Part shown: piece by piece, positions 17,335-52,700 of the stretch
Layout of the letters: every line of letters begins with the position of its first letter
How positions within the stretch are numbered: position 1 is the stretch's first letter
Origin: a virus
Virus record (IMG/VR): IMGVR_UViG_3300031972_002446
Coordinates: 62,001 to 126,000 of that record
DNA length: 64,000 bases
Direction: 5' to 3' (one strand)
Program-made: the position numbers and the translations under genes
Notes under the pieces: generated by a model
The model's input: only the letters and a program-made list of their open reading frames with translations
Databases searched by the model: none
What the model was told of the DNA's origin: nothing

Positions 17335-18819
17335 TTATACCTTTAGCATCTTTCTAAATTCCATTACTGACTTTGCCGTAAACACTTCAGATATCCCGTA
17401 CTCTTTTATACATACTTCTGCCAGTTCTTCATCTGAATATTCCTTATATAAATACTCGATCATTTTTTCTGCTTCTATTCCCAATAATGTTCGACCATCT
17501 TTTCTGCGTAAATTATTTTCTAAATGACTCTGTAATGCTTTTGGTTTATATAAACCCATATCATATCTCATAGATCGCACAACCCCCATTTTATATACTT
17601 TCCCACATTCTTTATTTATATATTCCGCTAGTTGTTCGTCTGACATCTTTTCATAATTACTCGCAATCACTTGATAAACACCACTATTCCTACCTTTATT
17701 TCTAATAGGTTTATTTATTCTTTTATCTCTTCTATCTTTCTGACCCTTCCAGACATACTTCTGTAATTTCGATTTAATATTACTAATATCTTTAGAACTA
17801 ATATCTAAATTATATTTTTCACTAAAAGCCTCTGCTATTTTTTTATTCTTTTTATTACCATACTTATCCTGACATTCCTGCAAAAATTCAGCCACACCTT
17901 CTTGATTCCACAAAGATAGTCTTTTCTTAATTGTTGTATTATTTTTTATTATATCAGGATACTTTTCTCTTAGGTTTAATTCTTTTTCCCATCTATATAC
18001 TCCAGTAGCCACACTTATTTCTCCATTAACTTCACAATTGCTTTTCCATCCATAAAACTTAGTAATTTCTGCCCCATCTCCTTTAAACTTCAACCAAATC
18101 TTTTCAAACTGTTCTGGAAAATCCCCTCTTTTATCAATACCATTCTGTCTATGACTACCAGGTTTTAAATGCTTAGGATTATAACAACGTTTATTATCGC
18201 ACATATGTCTAATTAATTCTGGATATTCTCCATACTCATCCCAATAAGCTAGTCTATGTAACAGAATACTTTTATTTTCCTTGCCTATATGTATTACCAA
18301 TTTACAATAACCATCACCACTAGCATTTGATTTAATCATAGGTTCTTTACAAGAAGTTCCATTATAAATTTTATCACTTTTTATCACATAGTTATTATAT
18401 GTTTTACTTTTTCTTGCTTTATCTAAAAACTTAGTTATATCTTCTGCATTGACAGCTCTCCAATTATTTAACAAACATTCTTCTTTCCACCTATACTGAT
18501 ATTCCGTTTCCTTCTGTAAAATTAAACTTTCGTCGCATCTTTCTAAGATTACATACTTCATCTCATACTCTGGGCTATCAAAACACTCTTGAACTTTCTT
18601 AGAATAATGCTTCTTATTTTCTAGATGAAACTTATGTGTTTTGCATCTTGAGACTATATTTGCACTACTACCAACATATATTTTGACGTCATCCTCAGAT
18701 TGTTTCTGAAATACCAAGCCGTAGGTTCCAGAAATTTTTTCCAAACTAATTAAATATAATTCTTCAAATTCCTCAATTTCTTTTTTGGTAATTGCGTATT
18801 TTAGTGTTAATTGTGTCAT
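17335..18819 (-). CDS. GIY-YIG plus HNH homing-type endonuclease
   Basis: 494 residues from the ATG at 18819 (AGGGG upstream). Residues 31-110 are a GIY-YIG nuclease: GTYGLVF, KIYVGSS, Arg58 and Glu105 in QKETEY. Residues 185-230 are an HNH domain of the HNH_3 type: LLHRLAYWDEYGEYPE, then RHMC...RCYNPKHLKPG. The remaining 260 residues contain two or three helix-turn-helix-like segments (DEQLAEYINKECG, DEELAEVCIKEYG) likely to bind DNA. Free-standing homing endonucleases are common in phages, but carrying both nuclease folds is unusual. It lies next to the switch between the two arms. Confidence 0.85.
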   Translation of the reverse strand: MTQLTLKYAITKKEIEEFEELYLISLEKISGTYGLVFQKQSEDDVKIYVGSSANIVSRCKTHKFHLENKKHYSKKVQECFDSPEYEMKYVILERCDESLILQKETEYQYRWKEECLLNNWRAVNAEDITKFLDKARKSKTYNNYVIKSDKIYNGTSCKEPMIKSNASGDGYCKLVIHIGKENKSILLHRLAYWDEYGEYPELIRHMCDNKRCYNPKHLKPGSHRQNGIDKRGDFPEQFEKIWLKFKGDGAEITKFYGWKSNCEVNGEISVATGVYRWEKELNLREKYPDIIKNNTTIKKRLSLWNQEGVAEFLQECQDKYGNKKNKKIAEAFSEKYNLDISSKDISNIKSKLQKYVWKGQKDRRDKRINKPIRNKGRNSGVYQVIASNYEKMSDEQLAEYINKECGKVYKMGVVRSMRYDMGLYKPKALQSHLENNLRRKDGRTLLGIEAEKMIEYLYKEYSDEELAEVCIKEYGISEVFTAKSVMEFRKMLKV

Positions 18820-18931
18820 TATACCCCTTTTATTCTGCAAAAATAAAAATATATCTTTATAGTATCTTTTGTAGTTTAATCACAAAGAATCGTAATGTAC
18901 TATAATATATAATATGGTGCGATTTAAAAGC

Positions 18932-18960
18932 TTGACATATAAGGCGTTATAGCTTATAAT
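18932..18960 (+). promoter_or_regulatory. consensus sigma70 promoter of the rightward block
   Basis: A perfect TTGACA (18932-18937), 17-nt spacer and perfect TATAAT (18955-18960), 49 nt before the ATG at 19009. It is the only full-consensus plus-strand promoter in the window and marks the divergent boundary. Confidence 0.85.
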
Positions 18961-19008
18961 ATTATTAACGAATCGTTTTTTATTACCTATAGGAAAAAAG
19001 GAAATAAT

Positions 19009-19611
19009 ATGAAATTAGAGAAAAAAATCGTTATCCAACCCCCTCCTTTTTCTACCAATGCTGGACAAGTCGTTAATCCTGATCCACTAGAATTCGAAGA
19101 ATTGGACTTAACTTTTCAAGATACTCCTAAAGCAAAAACTATACAAGTATTTATTAAAGATATTCCTAATCCGATTAATCTTTATTCGGCAAAAGCTTAT
19201 GATGACTTAGGAGATTGGACTAAAGCACAATTAGAAACTCGTCTTAAAGAAGCTTTAGGTCCTTATCCAGATGTCTTTTTAAGAAGTACTTTTCCTAGAA
19301 CTATGGAAGAAGATCCACATGGCCCAGGAACTCAATTATCTAAAATGATTAAAACTTTAGGTATTCACATGAGCGATAGTTGCTCTTGTCGTAGACATGC
19401 GTTAAAAATGAATGAGATGGGCGGAGATTGGTGTTTAGAAAATATTGATACTGTGGTTGGGTGGTTAGAAGAAGAAGCGAAGCGTAGAGGTCTACCTTTT
19501 GTGAAGATGGTAGGAAAGGTAATGGTAAACAGGGCTGTTAAGAAATCTAAGAAATTAATAGCCAATGAACCAGTACCAGAGAATGATGAGGATTTGGATA
19601 AGGAAGATTAG
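19009..19611 (+). CDS. hypothetical protein with CSC-R / WC-N motif
   Basis: 200 residues. The C-terminal half reads GPGTQLSKMIKTLGIHMSDS, CSCRRHALKMNEMGGDWCLE, then NIDTVVGWLEEEAKRRGLPF. I know this block (GT-x-L...LGI...C-x-C...MN-x-G-x-WC-x-N...I-x-WL-x-EA) from diverse phage and bacterial proteins, often as an end module; its function is not known to me. The three Cys could bind a metal. The N-terminus is Pro-rich. It is the first gene of the rightward block, with its own promoter and a strong terminator. Confidence 0.75.
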   Translation: MKLEKKIVIQPPPFSTNAGQVVNPDPLEFEELDLTFQDTPKAKTIQVFIKDIPNPINLYSAKAYDDLGDWTKAQLETRLKEALGPYPDVFLRSTFPRTMEEDPHGPGTQLSKMIKTLGIHMSDSCSCRRHALKMNEMGGDWCLENIDTVVGWLEEEAKRRGLPFVKMVGKVMVNRAVKKSKKLIANEPVPENDEDLDKED

Positions 19612-19680: not shown

Positions 19681-19693
19681 TTGGTGTATATAA
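19681..19693 (+). promoter_or_regulatory. late-promoter-like motif TTGGTGTATATAA
   Basis: Lies 58 nt before the start codon at 19739, just after a terminator and without a TTGACA box. One of six similar sites in the rightward block. Confidence 0.55.
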
Positions 19694-19738
19694 AAAACAT
19701 ACGCATCTTATATGACATTGAACATCAAGGGTAAAAAT

Positions 19739-20671
19739 ATGGCTGAAGTAGTTTTAGGAACATTTAAGAATAATGACTTTGCTTGTGATGTATCTGATTG
19801 TGCTGTATCTGAGGGCAGTGCTGTCACAACCGTAACTAAGGTTACTTTTGATGATGATGTTCTTAAAGGCATATCTATAAAATCACCTCCAACATCAATA
19901 AAAAATTACGTTCGCAAATCATGGAGCCCTCTTGCATACGGTAGGACCGGGTCCGGTTGTACCCCCTACACAGCCGAACAATTCGCGCAAGTAGTTCAAA
20001 GCGAAGCAGCTGGTCTGACAGCTTGCTCAGGAAATTCAAATGCTACTTTTACAACCGGTACTTGTAGTTTAACAGTTTCAGGAAGTGTTACTGTTGTTTA
20101 TAGAGAACCTGGTAGCATCTTTGGAGGCAAAACCAATTGTGGTAATAGCGGTAGTATAACAAAGACTTTCAGTTATCATGCTCCATACTTGACTGGTCCT
20201 CAGTCAGTAACATTACAGAAAACATCTATGAATATGGAATTAGTAGACGGAGATGGTAATAGAACATCAACAGCTCAACCTATAGGACGAGACCTACCAA
20301 TGCCTCCTAATTGCTACGATGGAAGTACGCAATATGCATACAAGATGGAAGCTTGTCACGTTTGTGGAATTCCTTTCGGTAATGGGTCAGGACCAGGTTC
20401 TGCAACATTATGCAAAGGCACAGGTAACGAGCAAAATGTTTTTTCTGACACTGCTCATTCCACAGGTACTGCTATAGATAATGGTTATCCTACAGCAGGT
20501 CTTGCTGGAGCGGCTATGGCTGCTGTGGCAGGTCAAGCAGTAGCTGCTTTTGGTGCAGCCCGAGCAAATGCGATCAAAGCATATAAGGCTGCTTTAGCAG
20601 AAATGCCCGATCCTAATTGTGGTAGAATTTCTGTTGCGGTAAATTGCACTGCCTCAGTAGGTTGTTTTTAA
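19739..20671 (+). CDS. cysteine-containing putative virion protein
   Basis: 310 residues from the ATG at 19739, which has AAGGG 7 nt upstream. Beta-rich, Ser/Thr/Gly-rich segments (NATFTTGTCSLTVSGSVTVV) with about 15 Cys, including a CHVCG pair, then an Ala-rich stretch near residues 258-290 (AGLAGAAMAAVAGQAVAAFG) that could be a transmembrane or coiled helix. This composition fits an extracellular, disulfide-bonded tail or fibre protein. No family recognised; the role is inferred from place and composition. Confidence 0.65.
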   Translation: MAEVVLGTFKNNDFACDVSDCAVSEGSAVTTVTKVTFDDDVLKGISIKSPPTSIKNYVRKSWSPLAYGRTGSGCTPYTAEQFAQVVQSEAAGLTACSGNSNATFTTGTCSLTVSGSVTVVYREPGSIFGGKTNCGNSGSITKTFSYHAPYLTGPQSVTLQKTSMNMELVDGDGNRTSTAQPIGRDLPMPPNCYDGSTQYAYKMEACHVCGIPFGNGSGPGSATLCKGTGNEQNVFSDTAHSTGTAIDNGYPTAGLAGAAMAAVAGQAVAAFGAARANAIKAYKAALAEMPDPNCGRISVAVNCTASVGCF

Positions 20672-20709: not shown

Positions 20710-21888
20710 ATGGCAATTTATCAACCTATCAATTTAAATGAAACTGCTACTAGATTATCTTTTAAAGGAGCAGATGATAGTACTTTTACTGTTTCCTCAG
20801 GCAAGGTTGTAGATAAAGGTATAAATTTATTAATTAAAAATCCAGGAAATGAAACTAAAACAGATATGTATTTTCAAGTACATGAAGATTCTATTTCTAT
20901 AGAAACAAGTGATGTGACGTATTCTGGTTCTAAAATATATGGATTAATAGAATCTAGTATAGATTATGAAGATGATCAACCCGCTATTATAGAATTTAAT
21001 ATTACTTCTCCTACTTATAGGCCAGAATTTTCTAGCGTTGTAGCATCAGGTTTATTTCAAGGAAATAATTCTTATTCATTAACGGAAGACTATCTTTATA
21101 GCGATACCAGAGATCTTCATTATATTGATAGTGATTCTATGAATTCTATTTTTCTTGATATTTCTTTAATGTCTACAATCAATAGTATCGATATTTATAG
21201 TGGTGGATCTGGTTACAAATTAGGTACTGTATTTACTTTATCAAATAATGATGCTAGAACTACCATAGGCGGTTTATCTGATGCTAGTATTACTGGTAAT
21301 TTAAGTTTGAATAGTGGTACTGTTAGTATTAGCGGAGGCGAGTCTTATCAAGTAGGCGAAACCTTTACCGTAACAGATAGTGTTTCTGGTAGCAGTGGTA
21401 TTATACAAATTACAGAAGTAGCTTATAATAGTAGAGCAATTACAAAAATAATATTAGTATCTTCAGATAATGGTTTTACTAACACACCATCTGTAACTTA
21501 TAATGGTTCTAATGGTTCGGGAGCGACAATCACAATTAATGATAATTATACATTAGGTAGCGTAACAGTTAATGATGGTGGAGAAGCATATCCTGGTGGT
21601 ATTAATAGGGTAAAATCAAGTTTAGCTAGTGTTGAATATGATCCAACTGTTCAAGCGATATTAGTATTAATTACTGAATCATATAGAGAATCTGGTGTTT
21701 CTATAAAAAATAATTTCATATTGGCAGATTGTAAGATTAAAGAAGCAGGTAATAATTTAAACAGTGAATCTGATTATAAGTTATTTGATAATAATAAACA
21801 ATATAATTTTAACGATTATATTACTATTAATGCGTATATAGATATTGATGATACTATACCTAATAATGATCCAGTTTTTTTCGTGTAA
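20710..21888 (+). CDS. putative tail-fibre-like protein, cassette 1
   Basis: 392 residues from MAIYQPINLNETATRL. Residues about 160-330 contain repeated beta modules (SGGSGYKLGTVFTL; SGGESYQVGETFTV; NTPSVTYNGSNGSGATITIN), a pattern common in phage fibre and tail-spike repeats of the type GGSGY...G...F.V and P.VT...G(S/G)GA. The protein at 23097-24494 carries the same modules. It is followed at once by a CxCxC protein, and this pair is duplicated downstream. Confidence 0.7.
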   Translation: MAIYQPINLNETATRLSFKGADDSTFTVSSGKVVDKGINLLIKNPGNETKTDMYFQVHEDSISIETSDVTYSGSKIYGLIESSIDYEDDQPAIIEFNITSPTYRPEFSSVVASGLFQGNNSYSLTEDYLYSDTRDLHYIDSDSMNSIFLDISLMSTINSIDIYSGGSGYKLGTVFTLSNNDARTTIGGLSDASITGNLSLNSGTVSISGGESYQVGETFTVTDSVSGSSGIIQITEVAYNSRAITKIILVSSDNGFTNTPSVTYNGSNGSGATITINDNYTLGSVTVNDGGEAYPGGINRVKSSLASVEYDPTVQAILVLITESYRESGVSIKNNFILADCKIKEAGNNLNSESDYKLFDNNKQYNFNDYITINAYIDIDDTIPNNDPVFFV

Positions 21889-21908
21889 ATTTATAGGAGA
21901 CTTACCAA

Positions 21909-22853
21909 ATGAGCCGTTGCTGTACTGATGATTGCACTTGCCCTGAAGCACCCAAAACAGGAGCCTGGAGCACTGCGCACGGTCCTGGTTGTTGTGGTTG
22001 TCTCTACGATCAGGAGGGTGCTAGTTGCACAGATGTTCATGGTAAAAAACTTCCTGAGAGACATCCAGATCCTGATAATTGCAGTTGCATATGTAAAGGC
22101 GCTTCAGATGAGATTTGTGCGGCAAATCCGGGAATTCATACAGAGTTTGATAGTTTGAATTGTAGATGTTGGTGTTCTTATCTTGATGAAGAAGATGATG
22201 GAACTATAACAGATACTTGCGCTGGAGATAGTGGTGGTAAAATGTTTATTGACAAGGGATGTGATTGTGTTTGCGAATCAAGTTTTCCTTGTCCAGATCC
22301 TAAAAAACCTAAATGGGTCGTAAATGGTAAATATGACTGTGAATGTAAGTGTGATATAGAGCCAGAAGAATGTGAAGGATTCACGCCTGATTTTAATGAA
22401 GAAGAGTGTAAATGTCAATGTGATTTAATAGAAGCAAATCCAGATGAGCCTTGCCAAGATCCTGCAGCACCTCATTTCAACCACGCGGGATGTGGATGTG
22501 AATGTTATACATATAAGGTGGAATGTGATGAACCAGCCAAACCAGATGTAAAAAAAGAAGATTGTTCGTGTTTTTGTAGCAAAGCTGAGACAGGCTATTG
22601 TGAAAGCATAGAAACTGGTACCGGAGCTCAAGCAGGAAATTATCATGTTTTAGATCCTGCTAATTGTAAATGTGTATGTAACGCTGAGTGCTCAGCTCCT
22701 CTTGTGAAAGGAGATGGATGTTATTGTCGCTGTCCCTCAGAAACTATTTCTCCTACGTGTGATAAAGCTACTGAGAAATTTGATCCAGATAGTTGTTCGT
22801 GTGTTCCAAAAGATTATGTTTTAAGTCTTTTGAGTGAAGAGTTAATTCCGTAG
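21909..22853 (+). CDS. CxCxC-repeat cysteine-rich protein, cassette 1
   Basis: 314 residues with nine CxCxC units (NCSCIC, NCRCWC, GCDCVC, DCECKC, ECKCQC, GCGCEC, DCSCFC, NCKCVC, GCYCRC) spaced 25-35 residues. A typical unit is C-x(5-12)-P-x-F-x-x(3)-CxCxC. The only repeats of this kind I know are the CXCXC repeats of insect Balbiani-ring secretory proteins and VEGF-C. The N-terminus (CCTDDCTCPE...GPGCCGC) and C-terminus (CSCVPKDYVLSLLSEELIP) match the paralogue at 24500-25345. There is no signal peptide. Probably a disulfide-bonded rod on the virion. Confidence 0.75.
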   Translation: MSRCCTDDCTCPEAPKTGAWSTAHGPGCCGCLYDQEGASCTDVHGKKLPERHPDPDNCSCICKGASDEICAANPGIHTEFDSLNCRCWCSYLDEEDDGTITDTCAGDSGGKMFIDKGCDCVCESSFPCPDPKKPKWVVNGKYDCECKCDIEPEECEGFTPDFNEEECKCQCDLIEANPDEPCQDPAAPHFNHAGCGCECYTYKVECDEPAKPDVKKEDCSCFCSKAETGYCESIETGTGAQAGNYHVLDPANCKCVCNAECSAPLVKGDGCYCRCPSETISPTCDKATEKFDPDSCSCVPKDYVLSLLSEELIP

Positions 22854-22856
22854 CAA

Positions 22857-22871
22857 TTGGTGTAATATAAT
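22857..22871 (+). promoter_or_regulatory. late-promoter-like motif TTGGTGTAATATAAT
   Basis: 52 nt before the start codon at 22909, in the gap between the two fibre/Cys-rich cassettes. Confidence 0.55.
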
Positions 22872-22908
22872 AAAAGATACTACTTAATACGATAAAAAGA
22901 GGTTTTAT

Positions 22909-23100
22909 ATGAATATTAGTTATGGAAGTAAAATTAAATCTAGAATAGATAGAGATTTTAACGAAAGATCTATTACTAGGGGTACAGAACCTCAATTAAA
23001 AGACAAAACCAAAGTTGTATATCCTATACAACATCCTAGACCAAGATTCTTTTTGGGTCCATACAATCTTAAAGTTCAAACAGGGGGATCTGATATATGA
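22909..23100 (+). CDS. small basic hypothetical protein, 63 residues
   Basis: MNISYGSKIKSRIDRDFNER... ends HPRPRFFLGPYNLKVQTGGS. AAGAGG lies 6 nt before the ATG. It overlaps the start of the second fibre-like gene by 4 bp (ATGA), so the two are coupled. It is basic and Arg/Pro-rich. No counterpart precedes the first cassette. Confidence 0.65.
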   Translation: MNISYGSKIKSRIDRDFNERSITRGTEPQLKDKTKVVYPIQHPRPRFFLGPYNLKVQTGGSDI

Positions 23101-24494
23101 ATGACTCAAAAACTATGTATCAAATTTACAATGACGAATATTCATTAATATCTTATCCTTACGGAGTAGATAGTTCTTCTTTTGCTGTAGATGATACAAG
23201 AAAAGATATTACTTATGGTTTATATCTTAGAATTCCAATCGGAACTAGCGTAGCTACTCCGACTTTTAGAGAAGCGGAGTTGTTTACTGTATCTAAATTT
23301 AATGACGAAAGTATAGAATTTGTTACAGCTTCAGATAAATCTGGAAGTTTTTCTGCTTCTAGTGTTTATGTTGTTATTCCTTGTTATTCAAGAGTAGGTG
23401 GTAAAGGAAATACAATTATTGAATACGATATTGTTGCTGACACTCCCACTAATGCTTCAGGTGTAAATTTATTAAGCACAGAAAGTATTGATACAAGCAC
23501 CGATGGTATGAATACAGCTAATGTTTCTTCTGGGACCAAAGCAGAGCTAAGCGAAAGATTAGGATATAGTTATGATATAGTAAATGGTACTAATTTCAAC
23601 TCACGACCAAGAATTGCATCAGTATTAACAGCAGTTTCTGCTGAACCATCAGATGAAAACTATGTTAATCCTAGCTCGGGTTATAAAATAGGAACAACAT
23701 ACACAATATATCCGCTCGAAGGTTACTGGGATGATATAGACGCATCAAATATTGTTAAACCTACTATTACTGTTAATTATAATATATCATTAGACGCAGA
23801 AATGAAAACTACCAGTTTTACTATTACTGGTGGTTCTGGTTATCAAGCTGGTGATACATTTTCAGTGAGTAACGGAGGTTCTATAAAAGTGACATCTGTT
23901 GATAATCAAGGAGCTATTAGAGATATCGTTATGGTAACTCAAGGTTCTAGTTTTACCTCAGCGCCTACTGTTACTTACGATTCGCCTTCTAGAAGTGTTG
24001 TTGGTAGCGGAGCCACTGTTACTGTTAATAATAGTTATGCTGTAGATAGTGTTTCTTTAGATAGTTCTGATGGATTTCCTTTTACAGAAGGTGGTGTGGG
24101 TACTATCAGACCATTATCAGGTTATGATGCAGACTCAGATCTTATAGACTATACATTATATTATGAAACGGATAATCCAGGTGTTTATGCTGTTGAGAAT
24201 TTAGATAAGTTTTCTTTAGATTCTATCTACGTTATGAATAAGGGTGTTGGCTATGGTGCCGTTACTGATTATGATTTACATATTTATAAACCTAATTATG
24301 TTACTAGACTATATGAATATGTTGCAAACACTTTTGATATAACTTACGACTTAAAACTTAAGGCTGATTTACAGATGCTACCATCTTATGGAAGTAGTAC
24401 TCCAGATGCTAGTAGATTTTATAATCCTTCTGCGATAGTTGGTCCAACACCTAACAATCGTATATTCACACACACTATTAAGGAAGAGGAGTAA
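23097..24494 (+). CDS. putative tail-fibre-like protein, cassette 2
   Basis: 465 residues. The middle (about 240-320) repeats the modules of 20710-21888: FTITGGSGYQAGDTFSVSNG, then QGSSFTSAPTVTYD and GSGATVTVNNSY. Flanking regions are beta-rich with many Ser, Asp and Tyr. I take it as a paralogue that arose with the neighbouring CxCxC gene by cassette duplication. Binding target unknown. Confidence 0.7.
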   Translation: MNDSKTMYQIYNDEYSLISYPYGVDSSSFAVDDTRKDITYGLYLRIPIGTSVATPTFREAELFTVSKFNDESIEFVTASDKSGSFSASSVYVVIPCYSRVGGKGNTIIEYDIVADTPTNASGVNLLSTESIDTSTDGMNTANVSSGTKAELSERLGYSYDIVNGTNFNSRPRIASVLTAVSAEPSDENYVNPSSGYKIGTTYTIYPLEGYWDDIDASNIVKPTITVNYNISLDAEMKTTSFTITGGSGYQAGDTFSVSNGGSIKVTSVDNQGAIRDIVMVTQGSSFTSAPTVTYDSPSRSVVGSGATVTVNNSYAVDSVSLDSSDGFPFTEGGVGTIRPLSGYDADSDLIDYTLYYETDNPGVYAVENLDKFSLDSIYVMNKGVGYGAVTDYDLHIYKPNYVTRLYEYVANTFDITYDLKLKADLQMLPSYGSSTPDASRFYNPSAIVGPTPNNRIFTHTIKEEE

Positions 24495-24499
24495 CTCTT

Positions 24500-25345
24500 A
24501 TGACAGTTCTTATATGTTGCGGAGGATGCAATTGTCCTTCAGATAAGCCTAATGTAATACCAGATGCTGTACAAGGACCATGTTGTAGATGTGATATTGA
24601 CGAAGGTATTGAAGAATGTCCTGCTAATGATCCTCATCCTGTTCATGGTAGATTACCAGGACCTGTAGGTGCTTGTGCGTGTGAGTGTGATCCCGGTAGA
24701 GCTGGTCAAATTGGTGAATACACACCTGAATTTGATGAAGATGGCGTTATGACAGCCAATACTTGGGAAGGAGAATGTCCTCCAAATGTTCCTGAATTTG
24801 ATACTGCTATTTGCGCATGTAAATGCACCAAGGATGCTGACACTTGTGCTCCTAAGACATTTATATCAGAAATCTGCGATTGTAAATGTACAAAAACCGA
24901 GGATGATTGCTCAGCCCCTAACCCAGAATTAGATCCAGACTCTTGCTCGTGCGGTCCATGTACGAACACTTGCGAAGATGCAGCCCTGCCAGATCGAGAT
25001 GATGATACATGTGAGTGTAAATGTGATAAAGACGATCCTGATGGTGGTAATTCTTGCCCAGAAGATACTCCGGATTTAAAAGCTGAAGATTGCAGTTGCT
25101 TCTGTGCTTTAGCTGAGCTTGAAACTCCTTGTGCTAAAGGTGAGAAGTTCTCCCCAGGTACTTGTTCTTGTGATCCTTGTCCTACACCATGCCCTGAAAA
25201 TCATGTCAGAGATGACGTAGGTTGTGGTTGTGCTTGTCCTCAGCCTAAAGCAATCTGTGCTTCAGATGAAACTTTTGATGATGAGACATGTAGTTGTGTT
25301 CCTAGCTATGCATCAGCTTTACTCGATGTAGACCTTCTACCTTAA
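24500..25345 (+). CDS. CxCxC-repeat cysteine-rich protein, cassette 2
   Basis: 281 residues, six exact CxCxC units (ACACEC, ICACKC, ICDCKC, TCECKC, DCSCFC, GCGCAC) and several CSC-x(2)-C variants, again with short Pro/Asp-rich linkers. N-terminus (CCGGCNCP...GPCCRC) and C-terminus (CSCVPSYASALLDVDLLP) match the paralogue at 21909-22853, so ends are conserved while the repeat number differs. GGAG precedes the start region. Probably a virion surface or tail component; a link to the fibre gene just upstream is inferred from the repeated pairing. Confidence 0.75.
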   Translation: MTVLICCGGCNCPSDKPNVIPDAVQGPCCRCDIDEGIEECPANDPHPVHGRLPGPVGACACECDPGRAGQIGEYTPEFDEDGVMTANTWEGECPPNVPEFDTAICACKCTKDADTCAPKTFISEICDCKCTKTEDDCSAPNPELDPDSCSCGPCTNTCEDAALPDRDDDTCECKCDKDDPDGGNSCPEDTPDLKAEDCSCFCALAELETPCAKGEKFSPGTCSCDPCPTPCPENHVRDDVGCGCACPQPKAICASDETFDDETCSCVPSYASALLDVDLLP

Positions 25346-28729: not shown

Positions 28730-29189
28730 TGAGAAAAAATATAGTTTTAATGTTATTATAGACACCAGAGAACAGAAGCCTTGGGCTTTTGCTGGTTGTG
28801 AAACTATTAATAAAAAATTAGATACTGGAGATTATTCCATTGAAGGCTTAGAGAATCTATTATGTATAGAAAGAAAAAATAGCGTTAGCGAAATAGCTAA
28901 TAATATATCAGAAGCTAGATTTAAAGCTGAAATACTTAGAATGCAAGATTACTTATATAAGTTTATATTGCTAGAGTTTAGTTTACAAGATATTTTAAAT
29001 TATCCCAAAGGATCATCAGTACCTAGACATATGTGGAATAAAATTAAAATAAGACCTGCTTTTATCTTAAAGTATATCACAGAACTTCAAACTAAACATA
29101 ATATCAATGTAGTATTTTGTGACAACCCTCAGGCCGCTAACCAAATGGCCTTTTCAATTATTAAGAGAGTGAATGAATCTCATGGATAA
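28719..29189 (+). CDS. ERCC4-domain nuclease
   Basis: 156 residues with the XPF/Mus81-type nuclease signature: IIDTREQKPW (Asp15, Arg17-Glu18), LDTGDYSIEG (GDY at 37-39) and CIERKNS (ERK at 51-53). The family cuts branched or flap DNA using a divalent metal. There is no helix-hairpin-helix domain. Beside the terminase genes it may resolve branches before packaging, as endonuclease VII does in T4 (inference by analogy). Confidence 0.88.
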   Translation: MTSNEKKYSFNVIIDTREQKPWAFAGCETINKKLDTGDYSIEGLENLLCIERKNSVSEIANNISEARFKAEILRMQDYLYKFILLEFSLQDILNYPKGSSVPRHMWNKIKIRPAFILKYITELQTKHNINVVFCDNPQAANQMAFSIIKRVNESHG

Positions 29190-39421: not shown

Positions 39422-39437
39422 TTGGTGTATAATTATT
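39422..39437 (+). promoter_or_regulatory. late-promoter-like motif TTGGTGTATAATTATT
   Basis: Starts one base after the previous stop and lies 59 nt before the start of the first tail-tube-like gene. Confidence 0.55.
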
Positions 39438-39480: not shown

Positions 39481-40380
39481 ATGCCAAATAATAGAGTATT
39501 TTACGCATCTCAGGGCGTATCAATTGGTGGTACAGTTGTACAAGGCGCTCAGAGCGTCGGTATTACCACCAATTTCAACCTAGAGCAAGTTTTTCAATTA
39601 GGTCAACTAGCCTTGTATGATAATGTATCGTTAGATCCAGAAGTAGAAATTACAGTATCTAAAATTCTTGATGGAGAATCTTCCGTTTGGAAACTTGCTA
39701 CTGGTGGTGGTACTTTGATCGCTAACGCTAATGATGAAGCAGTTGTTGTAGTAGGTATCGGTAGTGATACTGGCTCTACCTTAAGTAGCACAAGCGCTAT
39801 TACTTGTAGCGGTATGTTTGTTTCTTCTGTTTCTTATACTTTCCCAGTTGATGGTAATATGACAGAAGAAGTTACTTTTGTTGGTAATGCTAAAGCTTTA
39901 ACAGGTAGTGTTGCTGCTCCTGCTACCACAGAAAAAACTGTATTAAGACGTCAAAATATTAATTTTGGCGCCGCATCCGCTGTTTTACCTACAGAAGTAG
40001 ATGGTAAAAATATCACAAGTATTAGTATTAGTGCTGATCTTGGTCGTGAAAGTATGTATAAACTTGGTTCTTTGAAACCATTCCATCGTTTCGTTAATTT
40101 CCCACTTGAAGTTACTTGTGAGTTCGAAGTTAGCGCTACAGATCTTGATGGTGTTGAAGTCGATGTACCAGATACAGCTTGTAGCGGTTTGGCTAGTAAT
40201 GACCGTGAAATTGTTGTTGTAGTTTGTGGCACAGATGGTAACGACGCATACACGTTTGATCTCGGTGATAAATGTAAGTTAACAAGTGTTAATTATAGTG
40301 GTGGAGATACTGGTGGTGGTAATGCAACCATTACTTACTCTTTTAGTACTTATAATGAACTTGAAATTACAGACGCTTAA
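39481..40380 (+). CDS. tail-tube-like protein 1
   Basis: 299 residues. Beta-rich with Gly/Thr/Ser turns. The opening (NNRVFYASQGVSIGG... SVGITTNFNLEQVFQLGQL) and block SYTFPVDGNMTEEVTFVGNA are shared with the next gene, showing a tandem duplication. Position before the assembly chaperones and tape measure is that of the major tail (tube) protein. GGAG precedes the ATG; codon use is relatively GC-rich, consistent with high expression. Confidence 0.75.
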   Translation: MPNNRVFYASQGVSIGGTVVQGAQSVGITTNFNLEQVFQLGQLALYDNVSLDPEVEITVSKILDGESSVWKLATGGGTLIANANDEAVVVVGIGSDTGSTLSSTSAITCSGMFVSSVSYTFPVDGNMTEEVTFVGNAKALTGSVAAPATTEKTVLRRQNINFGAASAVLPTEVDGKNITSISISADLGRESMYKLGSLKPFHRFVNFPLEVTCEFEVSATDLDGVEVDVPDTACSGLASNDREIVVVVCGTDGNDAYTFDLGDKCKLTSVNYSGGDTGGGNATITYSFSTYNELEITDA

Positions 40381-40457: not shown

Positions 40458-41306
40458 ATGGCGAATAGAATTTTTTATGCTTGTCACGCCTTGGCTGTTG
40501 ATGGAAGTTTTGTCGCCGGTGCTCAAAGCGCTGCTATCACTACATCTTTTGACCTTGAGCCAGTATTTCAATTAGGTCAATTAGAAGCTGTAGATGTTTT
40601 AAATCTATCTCCTAATGTTGAAGTTACAGTAACTAGGGCTCTGACCGATAGTAGCGGTACTATTTTTAGTGGTAGTTTTATTGATAATGTTGGAGATAAT
40701 AATAAAACAGTTTGCTTAGGTATTGGAGATGATCAGGAGGAGCTATTAACCTCAACATCTTCTATTCATTGTACAGGTATGGGTATTAGTGGTGTTACAT
40801 ATAACTTTCCTGTAGATGGAATATTTACAGAAGAAGTTAGTTTTTCAGGAACTAGCAAGACTGTTGGTGGTTGTAGTGTGAGCGCTTCAGAAGACACAAC
40901 CTCTAAAGCTTTAGTCAGATATAGTTATCAAAGCGGTGTTCCTGCTACAGTTACAAACGCTGGTAATTTAACCAATATTAGTATTAGCGCTTCGATTAGT
41001 AGAGAAAATTTATTTAGATTAGGTGAATATAAAGCTTATCATAATTTTGCAAGTTTGCCTTCTGAAATTACAGTTGATTTTGAAGTTAGTGCTACCAGTG
41101 TAGATGGTATCGCAATAGCTGCTGCTGCTGGCTGTAATGGCCCTACAGACAATAAAGAAGATATTACTATTGCTTTGTGTGGATATAGTTTTGCGATTGA
41201 AAATGCTCGTTTAAGTAATGTTGCGTATGGAGGTGGAGATACTGGCGGTGGGAACGCTACTATCACATTCACGTACACATCATATAACAGCTTGACGGTT
41301 ACGTAA
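40458..41306 (+). CDS. tail-tube-like protein 2
   Basis: 282 residues, clear paralogue of the preceding gene: NRIFYACHALAVDG, AGAQSAAITTSFDLEPVFQL, then YNFPVDGIFTEEVSFSGTSK and GGGDTGGGNATITFTYTSYN match in order and spacing. Two tube-like proteins could build different tail zones or one could be a tube cap. GGAG lies before the ATG, directly after a terminator. Confidence 0.72.
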   Translation: MANRIFYACHALAVDGSFVAGAQSAAITTSFDLEPVFQLGQLEAVDVLNLSPNVEVTVTRALTDSSGTIFSGSFIDNVGDNNKTVCLGIGDDQEELLTSTSSIHCTGMGISGVTYNFPVDGIFTEEVSFSGTSKTVGGCSVSASEDTTSKALVRYSYQSGVPATVTNAGNLTNISISASISRENLFRLGEYKAYHNFASLPSEITVDFEVSATSVDGIAIAAAAGCNGPTDNKEDITIALCGYSFAIENARLSNVAYGGGDTGGGNATITFTYTSYNSLTVT

Positions 41307-43717: not shown

Positions 43718-46700
43718 ATGGCAGCAGCTTTTAATTTAACGGCACAAATTAATTTAAGAGGACCTAGTAATACTAAGGTTATTGCTTCTCAAATTAGAAA
43801 GCAATTATCTAATATTAAAGTAAAAGTTAATCTTGATTTAAAAGGATCAGCAGCTAAAAATGTTACTAAGGTTAACAAGCAGTTACAGTTGTTACAGCAA
43901 AATGCTGCTAAAGCTAATGCTAGTGTTGCTAGTTTAAGTGCTACAGTATCTCAGTTAGGGGCCGGTTTAAATAATTTAGGTGGCTCTGGAGGCGTTCAGT
44001 CTCTTAACAAAGTGCAAAAACAAGTGCAAAGTACTGGGAGTGCTATTAGCTCAGCTACTACCCAAGTTCAAGAATTTGGAAAACAATCAGGCTTAGCTAT
44101 TCGTAGATTCGCTGCTTTTAGTGCTGTTACTGGTGTTGTTTATAGTTTAACTAACGCTATTAATAGTGCTTTCAAAGAATTTGTAGCTTTTGATAAACAA
44201 ATTGTTCGATTAAGTCAGGTAACAGGAACGACTGTTAGTGGCCTTTCTGGTATTACAAAAGAAATCTCTAATCTATCTAGCAATTTAGGTGTTGCGTCTT
44301 CTGATTTAGCTCAAGTATCTGTTACACTTTCTCAAGCTGGTTTAAGCGCTCAAGAAACTAAAATAGCATTAGAAGCCTTAGCCAAATCTGCATTAGCTCC
44401 TTCTTTTGATAATCTTAATAATACTGTTGAAGGTAGTATTGCTTTAATGCGTCAGTTTAGTATTAGTTCTGGGGAGTTAGAAGCTGCTCTTGGTAGTGTG
44501 AATGCTGTAGCTGCTAGTTTTGCTGTTGAAGCTGGCGATATCATTGCTGCTATTCAGCGTACTGGTGGTGTGTTTGCTTCTTCTAGTAGGGGTATTAGTG
44601 AAGGTACGGCTGCTCTTAATGAATTTGTAGCTTTGTTTACTAGTGTTAGAGCGACTACTCGTGAAAGTGCAGAAACTATTGCTACTGGTTTAAGAACTAT
44701 CTTTACTAGAATACAAAGAGGTTCTACTATAGAGTCTTTGAAAGAGTTTGGTATTACGCTTACAGACTTACAAGGGAAATTTGTTGGACCCTTTGAAGCT
44801 GTTAAACGATTAAGCGAAGGTCTTAAAGGTTTAGATCCAAGAGATTTGCGTTTTGGTCAAATTGTCGAAGAGCTTGGTGGTTTCCGTCAAATTGGTAAAG
44901 TTATTCCTTTAATTCAACAGTTCGCCACTGCTCAAAAAGCTTTAGGGGTAGCTCAATCTGGGCAAGGCAGTTTATCTAAAGCGGCTATACAAGCTCAAGC
45001 ATCTTTAGCAGTTCAATTTGAAAAAACCAGACAGTCTTTTGTTTCTTTAGTTAGAGATATAGGTAATAGCACAACTTTCAGAGGCATTGCTAAAGTTGCT
45101 TTAACAACAGCAAATGCATTTATAACATTGGCTTCAGCATTAAAACCTTTATTGCCTATGATAACGGCCTTAGCTGCTTTTAAGGGAGTTTCGGCATTAA
45201 GTGAATTTGGTGGTGGTTTTCTTGGTGGGTTTGGAGGTAAAGGCGGAGGCGGAGGAGGCGGAGGTGGTCCATCAGGCCCAATGGGTCCAATAGGTCCTTC
45301 TTCTGGCGGTAGTGTTAGTGGTAGAGGTAGTGGTCGTAGGAATAAAGGCTCGGCTTCTAACAACAAAGCTTTAGCTAAAAATTCAGCAGCTTTAAACGCT
45401 AATACAACAGCACTAGGCTCTGTAAATACTAGTATGGCTAGCTTACTTCAGTCTATTGATGCTTTGTCTGAAGCTATTAATAATAAACAATCTGGAGTTA
45501 ATACTCAAGGCTTTGCTAGTGGTGGTTTGGTTCCTGGAAGTGGTAATAGAGACACTGTATCTGCTATGCTAACTCCTGGTGAATATGTTATTCGTAAAAA
45601 AGCTGTTGAAAAAATAGGCGCAGATAATCTTAAAAAACTTAATCGTGGAGGTAGAGTACAAAGATTTACCGGTGGTGGTGGAGCTGAAGCTTTGACTGTA
45701 GACGATATTAAAATATTTGAATCTGGTCAAAACGCAGGAGGAATTCCTAAGGGACAATTAAAAAACATGCCGAGTAGCCTAGCACAATCTGTAATAGATC
45801 GTTATAAAGGTAAAGGTAAACTTAATCAAGAAACATTTAAAGCCTTAAAAGAAAAAGTAGCATTAAAAGCAGCACAAGATAAAGCAGTACCTTATGCACT
45901 AGTTGGCCTGAGAGGAACTGCTAAAGAAGTGTTTGCAGAAGCTGATGACGGAACTATGGTAAAGCTTATTGGCAGAACTTTAGGCGAGACTGATGATAAT
46001 AAACCTTATGAAGATACTATGTTTAAGGATTTCAAAGACACGGTAGCTAAAGTGGCTAATCAGATGGCTACAAAAGTACAAGCTCAGCCAGTATCGCCAG
46101 GCGATCTGAATAAAGATGCTATGGAAAAAGCAGGTTTCTTTAATGCTGTAGGAGCTTATCTCGAAGCGGCTGTAGCAAGTATTGGTGCTCCTTACGATAA
46201 AGATCAGTCTAATGATCCACTAGATTTTGCGCAAGGTTTGGGTTCTGCTTCTGGTTTATTTGGCTTACCATCGGACATGCCTGCTGATACCACAAGAACA
46301 GTTTTTAGTAGTGGTAAAAGTCCTGCAGATTTTCTGAAACAAGTGAATAATTATAGAGCAAAATTAGCTGGAGGAGGCTCTGTTAGCGACACGGTTCCTG
46401 CATTATTAACTCCTGGTGAGTATGTAATCAATGAAAAGTCTGCAAAAAAATTAGGATCTCAAAAATTAGATCAACTTAATAGAGCAGATAGGATTCAAGG
46501 TTATGCTAGTGGCGGCCCTGTTGGTTTTGTTCAACGTTTAGCTAGTGGTGGTAGTCCTAGAGCAGATAAAATGGAATATCTGGAAAGAGTAGCTAAAAAA
46601 CTTGGAATGACTGTTTCACAATACGAAAAAAGTATTAGAAGTAGAATTCTTCAAGGAGCAGAAACTAGAGCTACCGAGAAAACAGGTATGCAAGGAGATC

Positions 46701-49700
46701 TAAAGGATGTTATTGTTAAAAATATACAATCTATTGGAGATGCAGATGTAGAGGGTATGGTTAGAACAGAAGTATCTGATCTAGTTAAGAAAATTTATAC
46801 GGGATATGATGAGATTGATCCAGATTTGTTGAATCAGGGTATAGATGAACTTGTTCAAGGTATGAAGGCAGGACTATCTCTTGATGAAATTAAAAATATG
46901 TCTGATGGGTTTAAAGAAATTTTAGACGCACAAATTACTGCTGGTGATGAACTATCTGGTGTTACAGAAGAGATGGCTAAGAAATTAGGATTTTTGACAT
47001 CTAGAATGAAAGTTCGAGATATTGATATGAAAGCTTCAGGTTCTCAAAAAGCCGGGAAGTTTGGAGCTTTAGATGACGATCTTAGAAAAGCACAAAAGAG
47101 TATCGAGTCTGGTGTCGGTTCTATATTAGATGGTTTTTCAGAAGCTGTTTCTTTACAAAATCTTCCAGGTATGAAGAAATTATCTAGTGCTTATCCAGAA
47201 TTGACTAAAAAGATTACGACAGCCGGTGATAAATTAGGTGGTACTTTTGGCTTAATAGGTACTGGGGCAACACTACTAAGCTCTAAAATGCCAGAGCTGG
47301 GTCATGCTTTTGATGAATTAGCTGGTACGGTTAGTGACCAAAGCGCAGCATTCGCAGGCTTCACTGGAGCTTTACAAAAAGGCGGCTCTTTAGGTATGAG
47401 CGCAGGAATAGTTGGAGGTCAAGCTTTTGGTAGAAGAGGTGCTGCTGTAGGAGGTGCTGCTGGCTTAGCTGCTGGAGCTGTCACAGGTTTTATTGACGCT
47501 TCTATTGTAAAAGAGACAGAATTAGCCTTTAAAGGTATCGCAGCAGCTTCGGCAGAGCTGGACAAAACTTTTAATAGGTTGGATACTGCTGTAACTGTTG
47601 AAGAAAGAGCAGCATTACAAGAGCAGGCGGCAGAAGATTATAATAAACTTAATGCTGCTATACAAAGAGCAACTGATACAATTGATGGTAATAGATTGTG
47701 GAAATCTTTTAGTGCTGGTATTAGTGGTATGACAACAGCTATGATTAGTTTAATTGGTGTCATTAATGCTGTTAAATTAGCACAAGTAGCCTCTGCTCTT
47801 CTACCAGGTAAAGTTTCCGGTGGCATTGTTAAAGGTTATGCTTCTGGTGGTTTTGCTAAAGGTGGTCAGTCTAGTGGTATGGGGGTTCCTGTTAGGTTAG
47901 CTTCTGGAGAAGCTGTATTTACGCCTCCTTTACCTGGCACTCTTTCTGAAATGAAACAATTGAATCAGATTGATCGTGGTGGTTCTTCAAGTTTAAGCCG
48001 AAAAGGTCAGACAGGTGGTTCTTTTATTGTTCCGGGTAATAGTAGTGGTAAGGTAGATAATCAAAGCGCTATTTTACCAGAAAACAGTTTTGTTTTAAGA
48101 AGAGATGCTACAGATACTCTTAAAGCTATGAGAGGAGGTCCGATATCTGCTGCTACAGGTGGATTAATAGGTAGTGGTAGTGTTGGTTTCGGTGGTAGCG
48201 GAGGTATTCGTGGTTATTCTGTTGGTGGAAATATACAAGGTTATTTTGGCGGAGGTAGAGTTGCTTCTGCTCTATTAGCAAAACTAGTGGCTAATCTGGG
48301 TCGTTTAGGTCCAGCAATAACTGCTGGATTTGGTAGAATGTCACCAGCACTCAAAGCAATAACAGGCCAACTCGCTACAATGGTAGGTATTAGTGCTTTG
48401 GCAGGACTTTTTTCAGGCTTTTTTAGCTTTTTTATGGGTTCGGCTGAACGAGACAGGGCTATTCTACAACAACAATTGCAACAATTAGAGAATTTAAATA
48501 CATTGGTTGGTAATCAGCAGTCTATGGATGTAAGAAATGAAGCTTTCGCTGATAGACTAATACCTGCTGTAGATGCAATCGAAAATTCTGGTTTGTCTAT
48601 GGATCAGAAAGAAATGCAATTTGGTAGATTTAGAACTCCTGGTGGTAGAATGAATGATGCTAATCTTTTAGGAGAGATGACAGCTCGTCAAGCTATCGGA
48701 GCAGATGCAGACCTAGAAGCTGTAGGACAGAATCAGTCTGTACAAGAATATTTAGATAGTCTAGATCCTACACAAAGACAAAAAGCTAACGCAGCTATTG
48801 ATAAAGCTCAAGGAGAGTTATTAAGAAGTACTTTTATAGAAAAAAGAAAAAGAGAAGGAATGGATGAAGTTGAGGCTTCGAGAGCTTATGATTCTGATCC
48901 TCAGGCTGCCAAAGCAGAGGCTCAAGAAGCTCTTGGAGAAAAGTCTAGGGCTGAGGGATTAGCTAAACGTATGCAAATTATCAATAGGTCTATTAATAAA
49001 TTTACTCTTAATTTAGTAGATGTAATGAATCGATTAGGCAGCGTTATGAATCGAACAATCGGAGATTTAAATGCTAATATAGATAAAATGAGTCAGGTTT
49101 CTGATATTTACAGCGGAGGTCAAGCGGGTTCGCTAAATCCTAACGAAGATAATGTAAGAATTTTATCTAATATTACTGCTGCTAGTAATGCAGAATTAGC
49201 GCAAGCTGTTGGTCAAATTAATAAAGATCTTGGAGATACTAAAGAAACCCAAACGATGGCAGGTCTTATCAAGGGTATTCAAGTCTTGCAAAAAGAGCTG
49301 CCTTTAATTCTTAGACAAACAGGAACTGGTGGAGATTTAGACGCTGGTTCAGAAACTAGTATTCGTGGTAGATTAGACACTATGTTTCAAGGTTTAGATA
49401 TTGGTGAAAATTTAAAAAGAGATCTTAAGAGTAATGTTATTAATTTTATTAATGATAAAACAGGTTCGAGACAAGGAGACTCTTTTGAAGATTTAGCAAA
49501 CTATATAGATGGACTGAAGGAATTAGATGAGGCTGCTGAGCAAGCCAGAGCAACTTTTGAAAAGTATGCTAAAGAACAAGCTGATTTTAATAGAAAACTT
49601 GGAGGCTTATCTAATCAACTAAGCGCTCAACTATCTAAACTTGCAGATAACGCTATTAGAGTTAAAGATATTCAATTAAATAGTGCTTTACAATTATCAG

Positions 49701-52700
49701 AAAAATTTAATAAAACATTATCGTTAAGTAGTCTTAATGCACCATTCATGAATTCTGTATCAGGATTAACCGGAGGTACCACAGATCCTGAAAAAATTGG
49801 TAGAGAGTTAGCTTCTGCTATCGAAAGACAAAGACAAATTGAAGCTGATCCTAATTCCCAAACGACTGCTTTAGGCTCTGGTGAAGTTGCTAAATTAACT
49901 TCTAAAATTAATAAATATCAAAAAGCTTTAGATATATTAGCAACTAGTACAGATAGAGCATCTAATGCATTGAAAAAGATTGATGAGCAACAAAGAATTT
50001 CTTCTGGACGAAGAAGTGGTGTTATGAGTTTTCTTTCTAACATAAATAACCCAGAAGCTTTGTTAGGTATGAGGCAAGAACAACAGTCTTATTCTAATGT
50101 TATGGCAGGTACAGGAACTATTACAGATATTGCTAGAGGTACTAATAGTCTTAATATGATGGAGTCAACTCAAACTCCTGAGCAGTTCCAGAAAACGCAA
50201 CAAAAATTCTTTGAAAATGCTATGCGTATTTTAGAGGCTAATGGTGCTAATCCCGCTGTCTTTAAACAATTTAGAGAATCATTCGCTGGTGATTTCGCCG
50301 CTCCTGATGCAAATCCTGCTGTTAAACCATTTATTGATGCGTATCAAGAAGCTGCTAGAATACAAACAGAAGCTGTTAAGCAACAATCTAATTTATTAAA
50401 TAGTGGAGCAGTAATAGCAGCGGATACTTTAAAGAAAAGCGCAGACGCTTTCGCTACTAAAATGAAAGAAGCCACTGCAGAAATTGTTAAAGAGTTTAAC
50501 GCAGTTGCTGATAGACTAGGTTTAGGCAAACCTAAGGACTCTAATAAAATGTCTAGTGGAGGTGTGGTATATGCTTCTGCTGGTCAATTTGTTAATTTTA
50601 CGCCTAAAGGCACCGATACTGTTCCTGCTATGTTAACGCCTGGTGAGTTTGTTGTTAATCGATCAGCAACTTCTAAGAATTTACCTTTATTAAAATCTAT
50701 TAATAGTGGTGGCTATAGTAGTGGTGGTAGTGTTGGTTATTATGCTGATGGTGGACAAATCGGACCAGGTTTAAAAACTGTTAATCGTAATTTTAATCTT
50801 TTATCTCCTTATCCAGAAAAAAGTTTAGACAATTTCCAAGAATATAAAGATCATGTACCATATGGGTATATGGATAGGTATTTTGGAAATAAAGATAGTG
50901 CTGTTTCTGAACGAGAGCTTAAATCAATGAATCAAGCTATTCAGAAACATCAAAAACAATACTTTACCACAACTAAGGTTAATCGCTATAAAAGCTTAAG
51001 ATCATTAGTGCCTGAATGGGAGAAAAACGAGAAAAACCAAGACAAACAAGCTAGTTTTTGGGATTGGATTACAGGGTCTAGTCCTGATAGAGGCATGAAA
51101 TTTAATTCTGGTAATTTTAAAAGTGTTAAAGATGCTAAAATTTTTGCTGGAACAATGGAAGCTGCTCATGGTATTCCTTTAGGGCGGGGTGTTGGTACTG
51201 GGGATATAGGAAGTTCTACATATAGTGGTAGATTTTATGGTGGCGATTCTTCATTTCCTATGGATAGTGCTACAAGTCAAGGATTTGGAGAGCTTTTACA
51301 ACAAAGAATTATACAATCTCGTTCTACAGATTGGGAAGCGTTTTTCTATGGTTTAGCTTCAAAGGCATTGCCTACTATTGGAGGTATTATTGGCGGTGGT
51401 ATTGGTGCTGTTTTAGGTGGTACGGCTGCGGTAGCTTCAGGAGGTCTGGGTGCGTGGGGTGTTCCCATCTTTACTGTAGCAGGTGCTATGGGTGGTAATA
51501 TGGCTGGTCATGCGGTTAATAGTTTTGCATACAGTATGTTACCTGATTCATGGCAAAAGCGTATTGAGCAAAAGGTTAATGACAATCCTGGTTCGTATAA
51601 TGCCGGACAATGGTTAGGCTTCGGAGCTGATGTGGTAGCAGGTGGTATGGGCGCCAATGCTGTTGCGAAAGGTATTAGCAGATCTATACCTCCAAGAGCA
51701 ATAGTTCAACAATTTGTCAGACAGGGTGGTACTACAGGAGTTAATGCGGCTCGCCCGACTGTAGAAGATGCTATTGATATGGCTACAAAATCTGCTGGAA
51801 CTAAAGCTGCTAATAATTCTAGAAATATTGGTAATAAAATACCAGTTACAGGTCAGCCAAATGCTACATTAAATATTGGTTCTGTAGATGATATATTGAG
51901 TTTACCACCAGGAATAAAACCATCTGGAGGAGCTAGACCTACTGGGTTACCTGGAGGAGGAGCTAGACCTACTGGGTTACCTGGACCTACTGGGGCATCT
52001 GGTGCTACTGGTGGTGCAGCATCTGCTACTGCTAGAGCTGGTGCAATTCAAATGAAAAAATTAGCTATGGCTCTAGAAGAAACTTTGTATGCAGGTAAAC
52101 CGCAACAATTAGTAGATGATATTATGTCTCCTAATGGTAAAGGTATATATGAGGTATTAGGTAGAGACCCTCAAATTCAAAGTGCTACTTTTAGAAAATT
52201 ACAAAAACTTCTACATCCAGATATGATGAGACATTCTAAAATGTTTGATGGTATGGGTTTAGATGATGCTGCAATAAAACTTTTCCAAAAACGATTGAGC
52301 TCAATGAAAACTGTTTTAGATAATAGTCTCATGCGAGCAGATTATGATCAGCTTTTAGGGAGAGGTCATTATGCTGACGATCTTTTAGATAATTTATCGC
52401 GTAATGGATTTAATGTTAGACAACTGTTGCAGCCAGGGTCGAGAGCTGCCGCAGCAACACCTAAACCTAAACCAGGTAGCCAAGCGCCGCCAAAACCAAA
52501 GGCTGAATCACCAAAACCTAAACCAGATCAACCTAAACCGGGTCAGCCTAAACCTAAACCAGATCAACCTAAGCCAGGGCAATCTTCTAAACCTAAGCCA
52601 GGACAATCGTCTAAACCTAAGCCAGGACAATCGTCTAAACCTAAGCCAGGACAATCGTCTAAACCTAAGCCGGGTGAAACACCTAAGCCGAGTCAACCTA

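What the first reader, a model, noticed from the sequence alone, without database searches (positions are those of the whole stretch)
20710..25345. Duplicated cassette of fibre-like protein plus CxCxC-repeat protein
Two tandem pairs each join a beta-repeat fibre-like gene with a protein built of CxCxC repeats (nine and six exact units). Both Cys-rich proteins keep the same N-terminus (CC..C.CP...G(P/C)C.C) and the same C-terminus (CSCVP...LL...L.P), while repeat number differs. The only comparable repeats I know are eukaryotic (Balbiani-ring secretory proteins, VEGF-C). The conserved ends suggest docking or assembly signals and the variable middle a rod. This looks like an undescribed disulfide-built virion appendage whose length varies by copy.
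Basis: partly seen in the sequence, partly recalled or inferred. Interest (0 to 1): 0.82.

Follow-up and report, generated by a model that had tools for sequence, protein, structure and literature searches.

The report
Disulfide-scaffold attachment cassette of planctomycete phage
An uncultured phage that probably infects planctomycete bacteria carries two late-expressed gene cassettes that pair a fibre-like protein with a very cysteine-rich protein; relatives carry one to four such cysteine-rich genes, and their pattern of fixed cysteines, fast-changing loops and a shared tail-end tag suggests a new kind of cell-attachment part built on a disulfide frame.

Summary
CysA (21909-22853, 46 Cys) and CysB (24500-25345, 42 Cys) are paralogues with an animal-type CXCXC/BR3P repeat, each just downstream of one of two paralogous beta-rich fibre-like genes. 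Three corrections. (1) Repeat number hardly varies: all six CXCXC-type members have 11-12 CxC clusters, so a variable-length rod is not supported. (2) The module is wider: six related phages carry 15 Cys-rich proteins of several architectures, nearly all beside a fibre-like or small 'MNxIYYxxGGxI' protein. (3) All 15 end in a tag, about LSxDLIP-COOH; among 2,086 C-termini the only other strong scorer is a lectin-fold protein beside an Mtd_N fibre. Cysteines are kept at 93-98% while other residues are 22-45% identical (terminase 79-85%); 14 of 15 proteins have an even Cys count. A TTGGTGTAW element precedes 7 of 9 cassettes and the tail-tube gene but none of 24 other window genes. The record carries planctomycete-type genes. 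Best reading: a late, fast-evolving virion attachment module, its disulfide scaffold displaying variable loops and docking by its C-terminal tag. Virion location, disulfides, docking and receptor are inferred, not shown. No relative was found among 50,697 phage records.

The parts
19681..19693 (+). TTGGTGTATATAA, putative late-promoter element of cassette 1
   Evidence: starts 31 bp before the ATG at 19712; same motif before the tail-tube gene and before cassettes of relatives
19712..20671 (+). first gene of cassette 1, 319 aa, 13 Cys; positional counterpart in L006, L008, L012
   Evidence: alignment to counterparts weak
20710..21888 (+). fibre-like protein A, 392 aa, with a G-G-x-x-Y beta-repeat domain
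   Evidence: PHROG 460 match E 7e-4
21909..22853 (+). CysA, 314 aa, 46 Cys, CXCXC/BR3P repeats, ends LLSEELIP
   Evidence: (PF03128, 19 bits)
22857..22869 (+). TTGGTGTAATATA, putative late-promoter element of cassette 2
   Evidence: exact match; 52 bp before the start at 22909
22909..23100 (+). small protein of the MNxIYYxxGGxI family, 63 aa, overlaps the start of the next gene
23097..24494 (+). fibre-like protein B, 465 aa
24500..25345 (+). CysB, 281 aa, 42 Cys, ends LLDVDLLP
   Evidence: (PF03128, 16.1 bits)
39422..39434 (+). the same TTGGTGTATAATT element before the tail-tube-like gene 39481-40380 (comparison site, not part of the cassette)
   Evidence: tail-tube assignment from weak PHROG/Pfam matches

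Best explanation
The two cassettes are late, fast-evolving virion attachment (adhesin or receptor-binding) modules of a long-tailed phage of Planctomycetes. Shown: each cassette joins a fibre-like gene, with or without a small IYY-GG protein, to a protein whose cysteines are almost invariant while its loops diverge; all such proteins in the clade share a short hydrophobic C-terminal tag; the cassettes carry the same upstream element as the tail-tube gene. Inferred: the Cys-rich protein is made reduced in the cytoplasm, docks by its C-terminal tag to a common virion site (the fibre or an invariant tail or head part), oxidises after release into a stack of disulfide-locked hairpins, and presents the variable loops to the host surface. 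Several cassettes per genome would give several interchangeable adhesins.
For: Co-occurrence in six related phages with 15 Cys-rich proteins. Tag: with a leave-genome-out matrix 13 of 14 Cys-rich C-termini outrank all but 0-4 of 1,312 other C-termini. A wider scan found a 15th Cys-rich gene not used to build the matrix and one FGE-sulfatase/C-type-lectin-like protein next to an Mtd_N fibre gene; every other ORF scored 3.2 or less. Cys kept 93-98% against 22-45% for other residues, while terminase is 79-85% identical. Even Cys count in 14 of 15 proteins, p = 5e-4, against 88 even and 75 odd in controls. TTGGTGTAW lies 31-59 bp upstream of 7 of 9 cassettes and of the tail-tube gene, but of none of the 24 other window genes tested; the five hits in relatives are independent of motif discovery. 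Short gaps of 20 and 5 bp between fibre and Cys genes suggest co-translation. Host: DUF1559, DUF1501 and PSCyt1/PSCyt2/PSD1 in the same record.
Against: No proteomics or imaging. The module lies upstream of the terminase gene, not among the tail genes, and in distant relatives the Mtd_N-type fibres sit elsewhere, after the capsid gene. No fold match for the Cys protein and a poor model of the fibre-like protein. The tagged lectin-fold protein is one example; most of its homologues lack the tag. The first gene of the cassette aligns poorly between genomes. Even Cys counts in homologues are not fully independent. One tag (L006b) scores weakly.
Confidence: 0.6

Rival explanations
1. Purely structural role: the Cys-rich proteins are decoration or stalk subunits that stiffen or protect the particle after release, with no role in receptor choice.
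For: Constant cysteine lattice and near-constant repeat number; late-type upstream element.
Against: Loops diverge much faster than the core genes, cassettes multiply and swap, and distant relatives lack the family altogether, which is more usual for host-range parts.
Confidence: 0.2
2. The Cys-rich proteins are not in the virion but act on the host, for example on the cysteine-rich protein wall of Planctomycetales, at lysis or as superinfection exclusion factors.
For: Planctomycetales walls contain cysteine-rich YTV-domain proteins (PMC8567305); the record also encodes a thioredoxin-like protein with an N-terminal hydrophobic segment and a WCPYC site.
Against: The Cys-rich proteins start without an evident N-terminal hydrophobic export segment; the thioredoxin-like gene does not track the module in relatives; pairing with fibre-like genes is unexplained.
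Confidence: 0.12
3. The cysteines bind metal (metallothionein-like, Zn or Fe-S) rather than forming disulfides.
For: Dense CxC spacing; synthesis in a reducing cytoplasm without an evident export signal.
Against: Even Cys counts in 14 of 15 proteins; match to the BR3P motif of secreted animal proteins; no Pfam metal-binding family matched.
Confidence: 0.08

Closest known systems
CXCXC repeat, Pfam PF03128 (Balbiani-ring 3 protein; C-terminal 'silk homology' region of VEGF-C)
   Same: Repeat C-x(about 10)-C-x-C-x(1,3)-C; PF03128 over its cut-off in CysA and CysB and in no control genome; motif as given in PMC10328876.
   Different: Phage gene, no evident secretion signal, distinct Cys-rich N-terminus CC..C.CP, C-terminal tag, fibre-like partner, no VEGF homology domain found.
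Mtd (major tropism determinant) and other C-type-lectin-fold phage adhesins
   Same: One tagged protein in a distant relative (L109) has an FGE-sulfatase domain and lies beside an Mtd_N fibre; a rigid fold carrying variable surface residues.
   Different: CysA and CysB have no lectin domain; variability is by divergence and cassette turnover; no retroelement was looked for or seen.
Phage virion proteins with GG-x-x-Y beta repeats (PHROG 460, head closure Hc2)
   Same: The beta-repeat domain of the fibre-like proteins.
   Different: Match E 7e-4 to one domain only; no tblastn hit for fibre-like B in 50,697 phage records.
Planctomycetal YTV cysteine-rich cell-wall proteins
   Same: Cysteine-rich and from the same likely host phylum (PMC8567305).
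   Different: No YTV or other Pfam domain found in the phage proteins.

Membership tests
CXCXC repeat (PF03128) / BR3P motif | repeated C-x(about 10)-C-x-C-x(1,3)-C | tested here: met
   5 and 7 full units against 0.2 in shuffles
CXCXC repeat (PF03128) / BR3P motif | Pfam model over its curated cut-off of 15 bits | tested here: met
   19.0 bits in CysA, 16.1 in CysB, 15.0 in G002 by six-frame search; marginal: hmmscan of the whole CysA protein gives 14.4 and CysB none
CXCXC repeat (PF03128) / BR3P motif | secreted eukaryotic protein, disulfide-bonded | not testable with these tools
   phage protein without an obvious signal; redox state not measurable; even Cys counts suggest full pairing
phage tail fibre / receptor-binding protein | sequence or fold match to a known fibre or receptor-binding family | tested here: not met
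   CysA, CysB: no PHROG hit, no phage tblastn hit; CysB model no fold hit; fibre-like A only a weak PHROG 460 match
phage tail fibre / receptor-binding protein | late expression with virion genes | tested here: inconclusive
   shared TTGGTGTAW element with the tail-tube gene; no expression data
phage tail fibre / receptor-binding protein | present in the virion and needed for adsorption | not testable with these tools
   needs proteomics and adsorption assays
planctomycetal YTV wall proteins | YTV domain | tested here: not met
   no such domain in Pfam scans
metal-binding Cys-rich proteins | match to a known metal-binding family | tested here: not met
   no such Pfam match in CysA, CysB or relatives

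The most novel reading that the evidence does not exclude
A plug-in adhesin system: a roughly 8-residue C-terminal peptide (LSxDLIP-COOH) lets unrelated proteins (CXCXC stacks, other Cys-rich folds, a lectin-fold protein) dock on one virion socket, and the disulfide scaffolds engage, perhaps by thiol-disulfide exchange, the cysteine-rich protein wall of planctomycete hosts.
Probability: 0.15. Interest if true: 0.85.

Novelty: new variant of a known kind. Interest (0 to 1): 0.62.

Why it matters
Phages are not known to me to build virion parts on dense CXCXC disulfide stacks, a motif described from animal secreted proteins. If confirmed, it gives a natural phage scaffold with a fixed cysteine frame and free loops, a short portable docking tag, and an entry point to how phages attach to Planctomycetes. 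The library held no paper with the phrase 'planctomycete phage'; the nearest work found describes one cultured planctomycete with a chronically released phage (PMC10945688).

Tried and rejected
Variable-length rod: rejected, since cluster number is 11-12 in all six members. Link to the phage-encoded thioredoxin: not specific. Fusion of the small IYY-GG protein to the N-terminus of some Cys-rich proteins: the profile search gave only E about 16, dropped. Fold matches for CysB: none in PDB or BFVD. Host from terminase hits in genome bins: three MAG contigs of unrelated phyla, taken as mis-binned phage DNA. L188, found with the Pro/Thr-rich L065 protein, is a low-complexity match. The L065 protein ending LLSAMVGLIP scores only 0.9 and is not counted as tagged. 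Whether host genomes hold the Cys family could not be tested: no planctomycete genome could be reached as a search centre.

Full report
What the window is. The window is bases 62001-126000 of a 165,940-base uncultured virus record. The + strand from about 19 kb to 64 kb carries late virion genes: terminase at 29173, a capsid protein at 35641 with a weak match to the major head protein of Bacillus phage G, tail-tube-like genes at 39481 and 40458 (weak matches for the first) and a 4,205-residue protein at 43718 that I read as the tape measure from its size and place. The same record carries DUF1559, DUF1501 and a PSCyt1-PSCyt2-PSD1 protein, families typical of Planctomycetes from general knowledge; a distant relative also has DUF1559, and another carries a subtilase with a below-cut-off match to the 'Planctomycete extracellular' model. 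A planctomycete host is therefore likely but not proven.

The observation. CysA and CysB have nine and six exact CxCxC units and share both termini. The fuller BR3P motif is strongly over-represented, and PF03128 is over its cut-off in just these two genes of the record and in none of 14 control genomes. The claim that repeat number differs is an artefact of counting exact CxCxC: including CxCxxC there are 12 and 11 clusters, and relatives have 11 or 12.

Relatives. Terminase searches and a fibre search gave six distinct phages with the module: the window's own (a second contig is 99.99% identical over 12.8 kb), L005, L006, L008, L009 and L012/L161. They carry 15 distinct Cys-rich genes, one to four per genome, nearly all beside a fibre-like gene or a 62-119 residue protein starting MNxIYYxxGGxI. 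Sixteen or so further records were searched whole; those outside the clade lack the family. No relative of CysA, CysB or fibre-like B was found in 50,697 phage records.

The C-terminal tag. All 15 proteins end in a short hydrophobic peptide, consensus about LSxDLIP-COOH. With matrices built without the genome under test, 13 of 14 outrank all but 0-4 of 1,312 other C-termini. A scan of 2,086 ORFs gave the 14, one further Cys-rich gene not used in training (L156:2366-3361), and one other protein, L109:13149-14909; the rest scored 3.2 or less. L109's protein has an FGE-sulfatase domain and follows an Mtd_N fibre, which suggests that tagged proteins are fibre-associated adhesins. That is a single example, and most homologues of it lack the tag.

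Evolution. Between the window and its relatives terminase is 79-85% identical, the Cys proteins 33-53%, the fibre-like proteins 25-35%. Cysteines are kept at 93-98% while other residues are 22-45% identical. Fourteen of 15 proteins have an even number of cysteines (p = 5e-4; controls 88 even, 75 odd). This is the pattern of a covalent frame with free loops. The two window copies diverged long ago: CysB is nearest to L005 and L012, CysA to L006.

Expression. TTGGTGTAW occurs 31-59 bp upstream of the first gene of 7 of 9 cassettes and of the tail-tube gene, but not of 24 other window genes; the motif was seen in the window first, and five of seven cassettes of relatives then confirmed it. The 200-residue gene before cassette 1 has its own consensus promoter and terminator and is probably a separate unit.

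Structure. AlphaFold2 on six sequences gives CysB as a series of short hairpins, mean pLDDT 65 and about 80 in repeat stretches, with no fold match. The fibre-like model is poor outside one beta domain.

Mechanism. The best-supported reading is a late virion attachment module whose Cys protein displays variable loops on a disulfide frame and docks through its C-terminal tag. Shown: gene pairing, tag, Cys frame against loops, shared upstream element. Inferred: virion location, disulfides (presumably formed after lysis, as no evident export segment is seen), the docking partner and the receptor. A possible tie to the cysteine-rich walls of Planctomycetales (PMC8567305) is speculation.

Novelty. 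A new variant of a known kind: phage attachment cassettes are known, but one built on CXCXC stacks with a shared C-terminal tag is not described in anything searched here.

Noticed in passing
L085:13163-14458 (-), L085:15081-17453 (-): The phage record encodes DUF1501 and a PSCyt1-PSCyt2-PSD1 'planctomycete cytochrome' protein, with a small gene between them and a ferredoxin next door: an unusual host-type block in a phage.
   Followed up: partly
L084:5585-6592 (-): DUF1559 pseudopilin-like protein with an N-methylation motif; DUF1559 also in the distant relative G005.
   Followed up: partly
L084:9092-9565 (-): Thioredoxin-like protein with N-terminal hydrophobic segment and WCPYC; present in some relatives irrespective of the Cys module.
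   Followed up: yes
L109:11400-14909 (+): Mtd_N fibre followed by an FGE-sulfatase-fold protein ending ASLSIDYIP, the only strong tag match outside the Cys-rich genes.
   Followed up: partly
window 19009-19611 (+): Conserved 200-residue protein of the whole phage group with a perfect TTGACA-17-TATAAT promoter and a strong terminator; sits inside the module in this clade but next to the terminase in others.
   Followed up: partly
window 39481-40380 and 40458-41306 (+): Two tandem tail-tube-like genes; the first carries the TTGGTGTAW element.
   Followed up: no
window 43718-56335 (+): A 4,205-residue single-ORF putative tape measure with a short Pro/Lys-rich tandem repeat, implying a very long tail.
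   Followed up: no
L088:16554-17756 and 17775-19007 (-): Two adjacent proteins with 22 and 24 Cys and no family match, without the tag.
   Followed up: no
L014:260-1474, L027:3065-4387, L040:4204-5406 (-): Subtilase genes upstream of the terminase in relatives; the L014 protein has a below-cut-off match to the planctomycete extracellular signal, the other two have none.
   Followed up: partly
L149, L150, L151: Relatives of this phage's terminase sit in MAGs labelled Alphaproteobacteria, Flavobacteriales and SAR202, probably mis-binned phage contigs.
   Followed up: no
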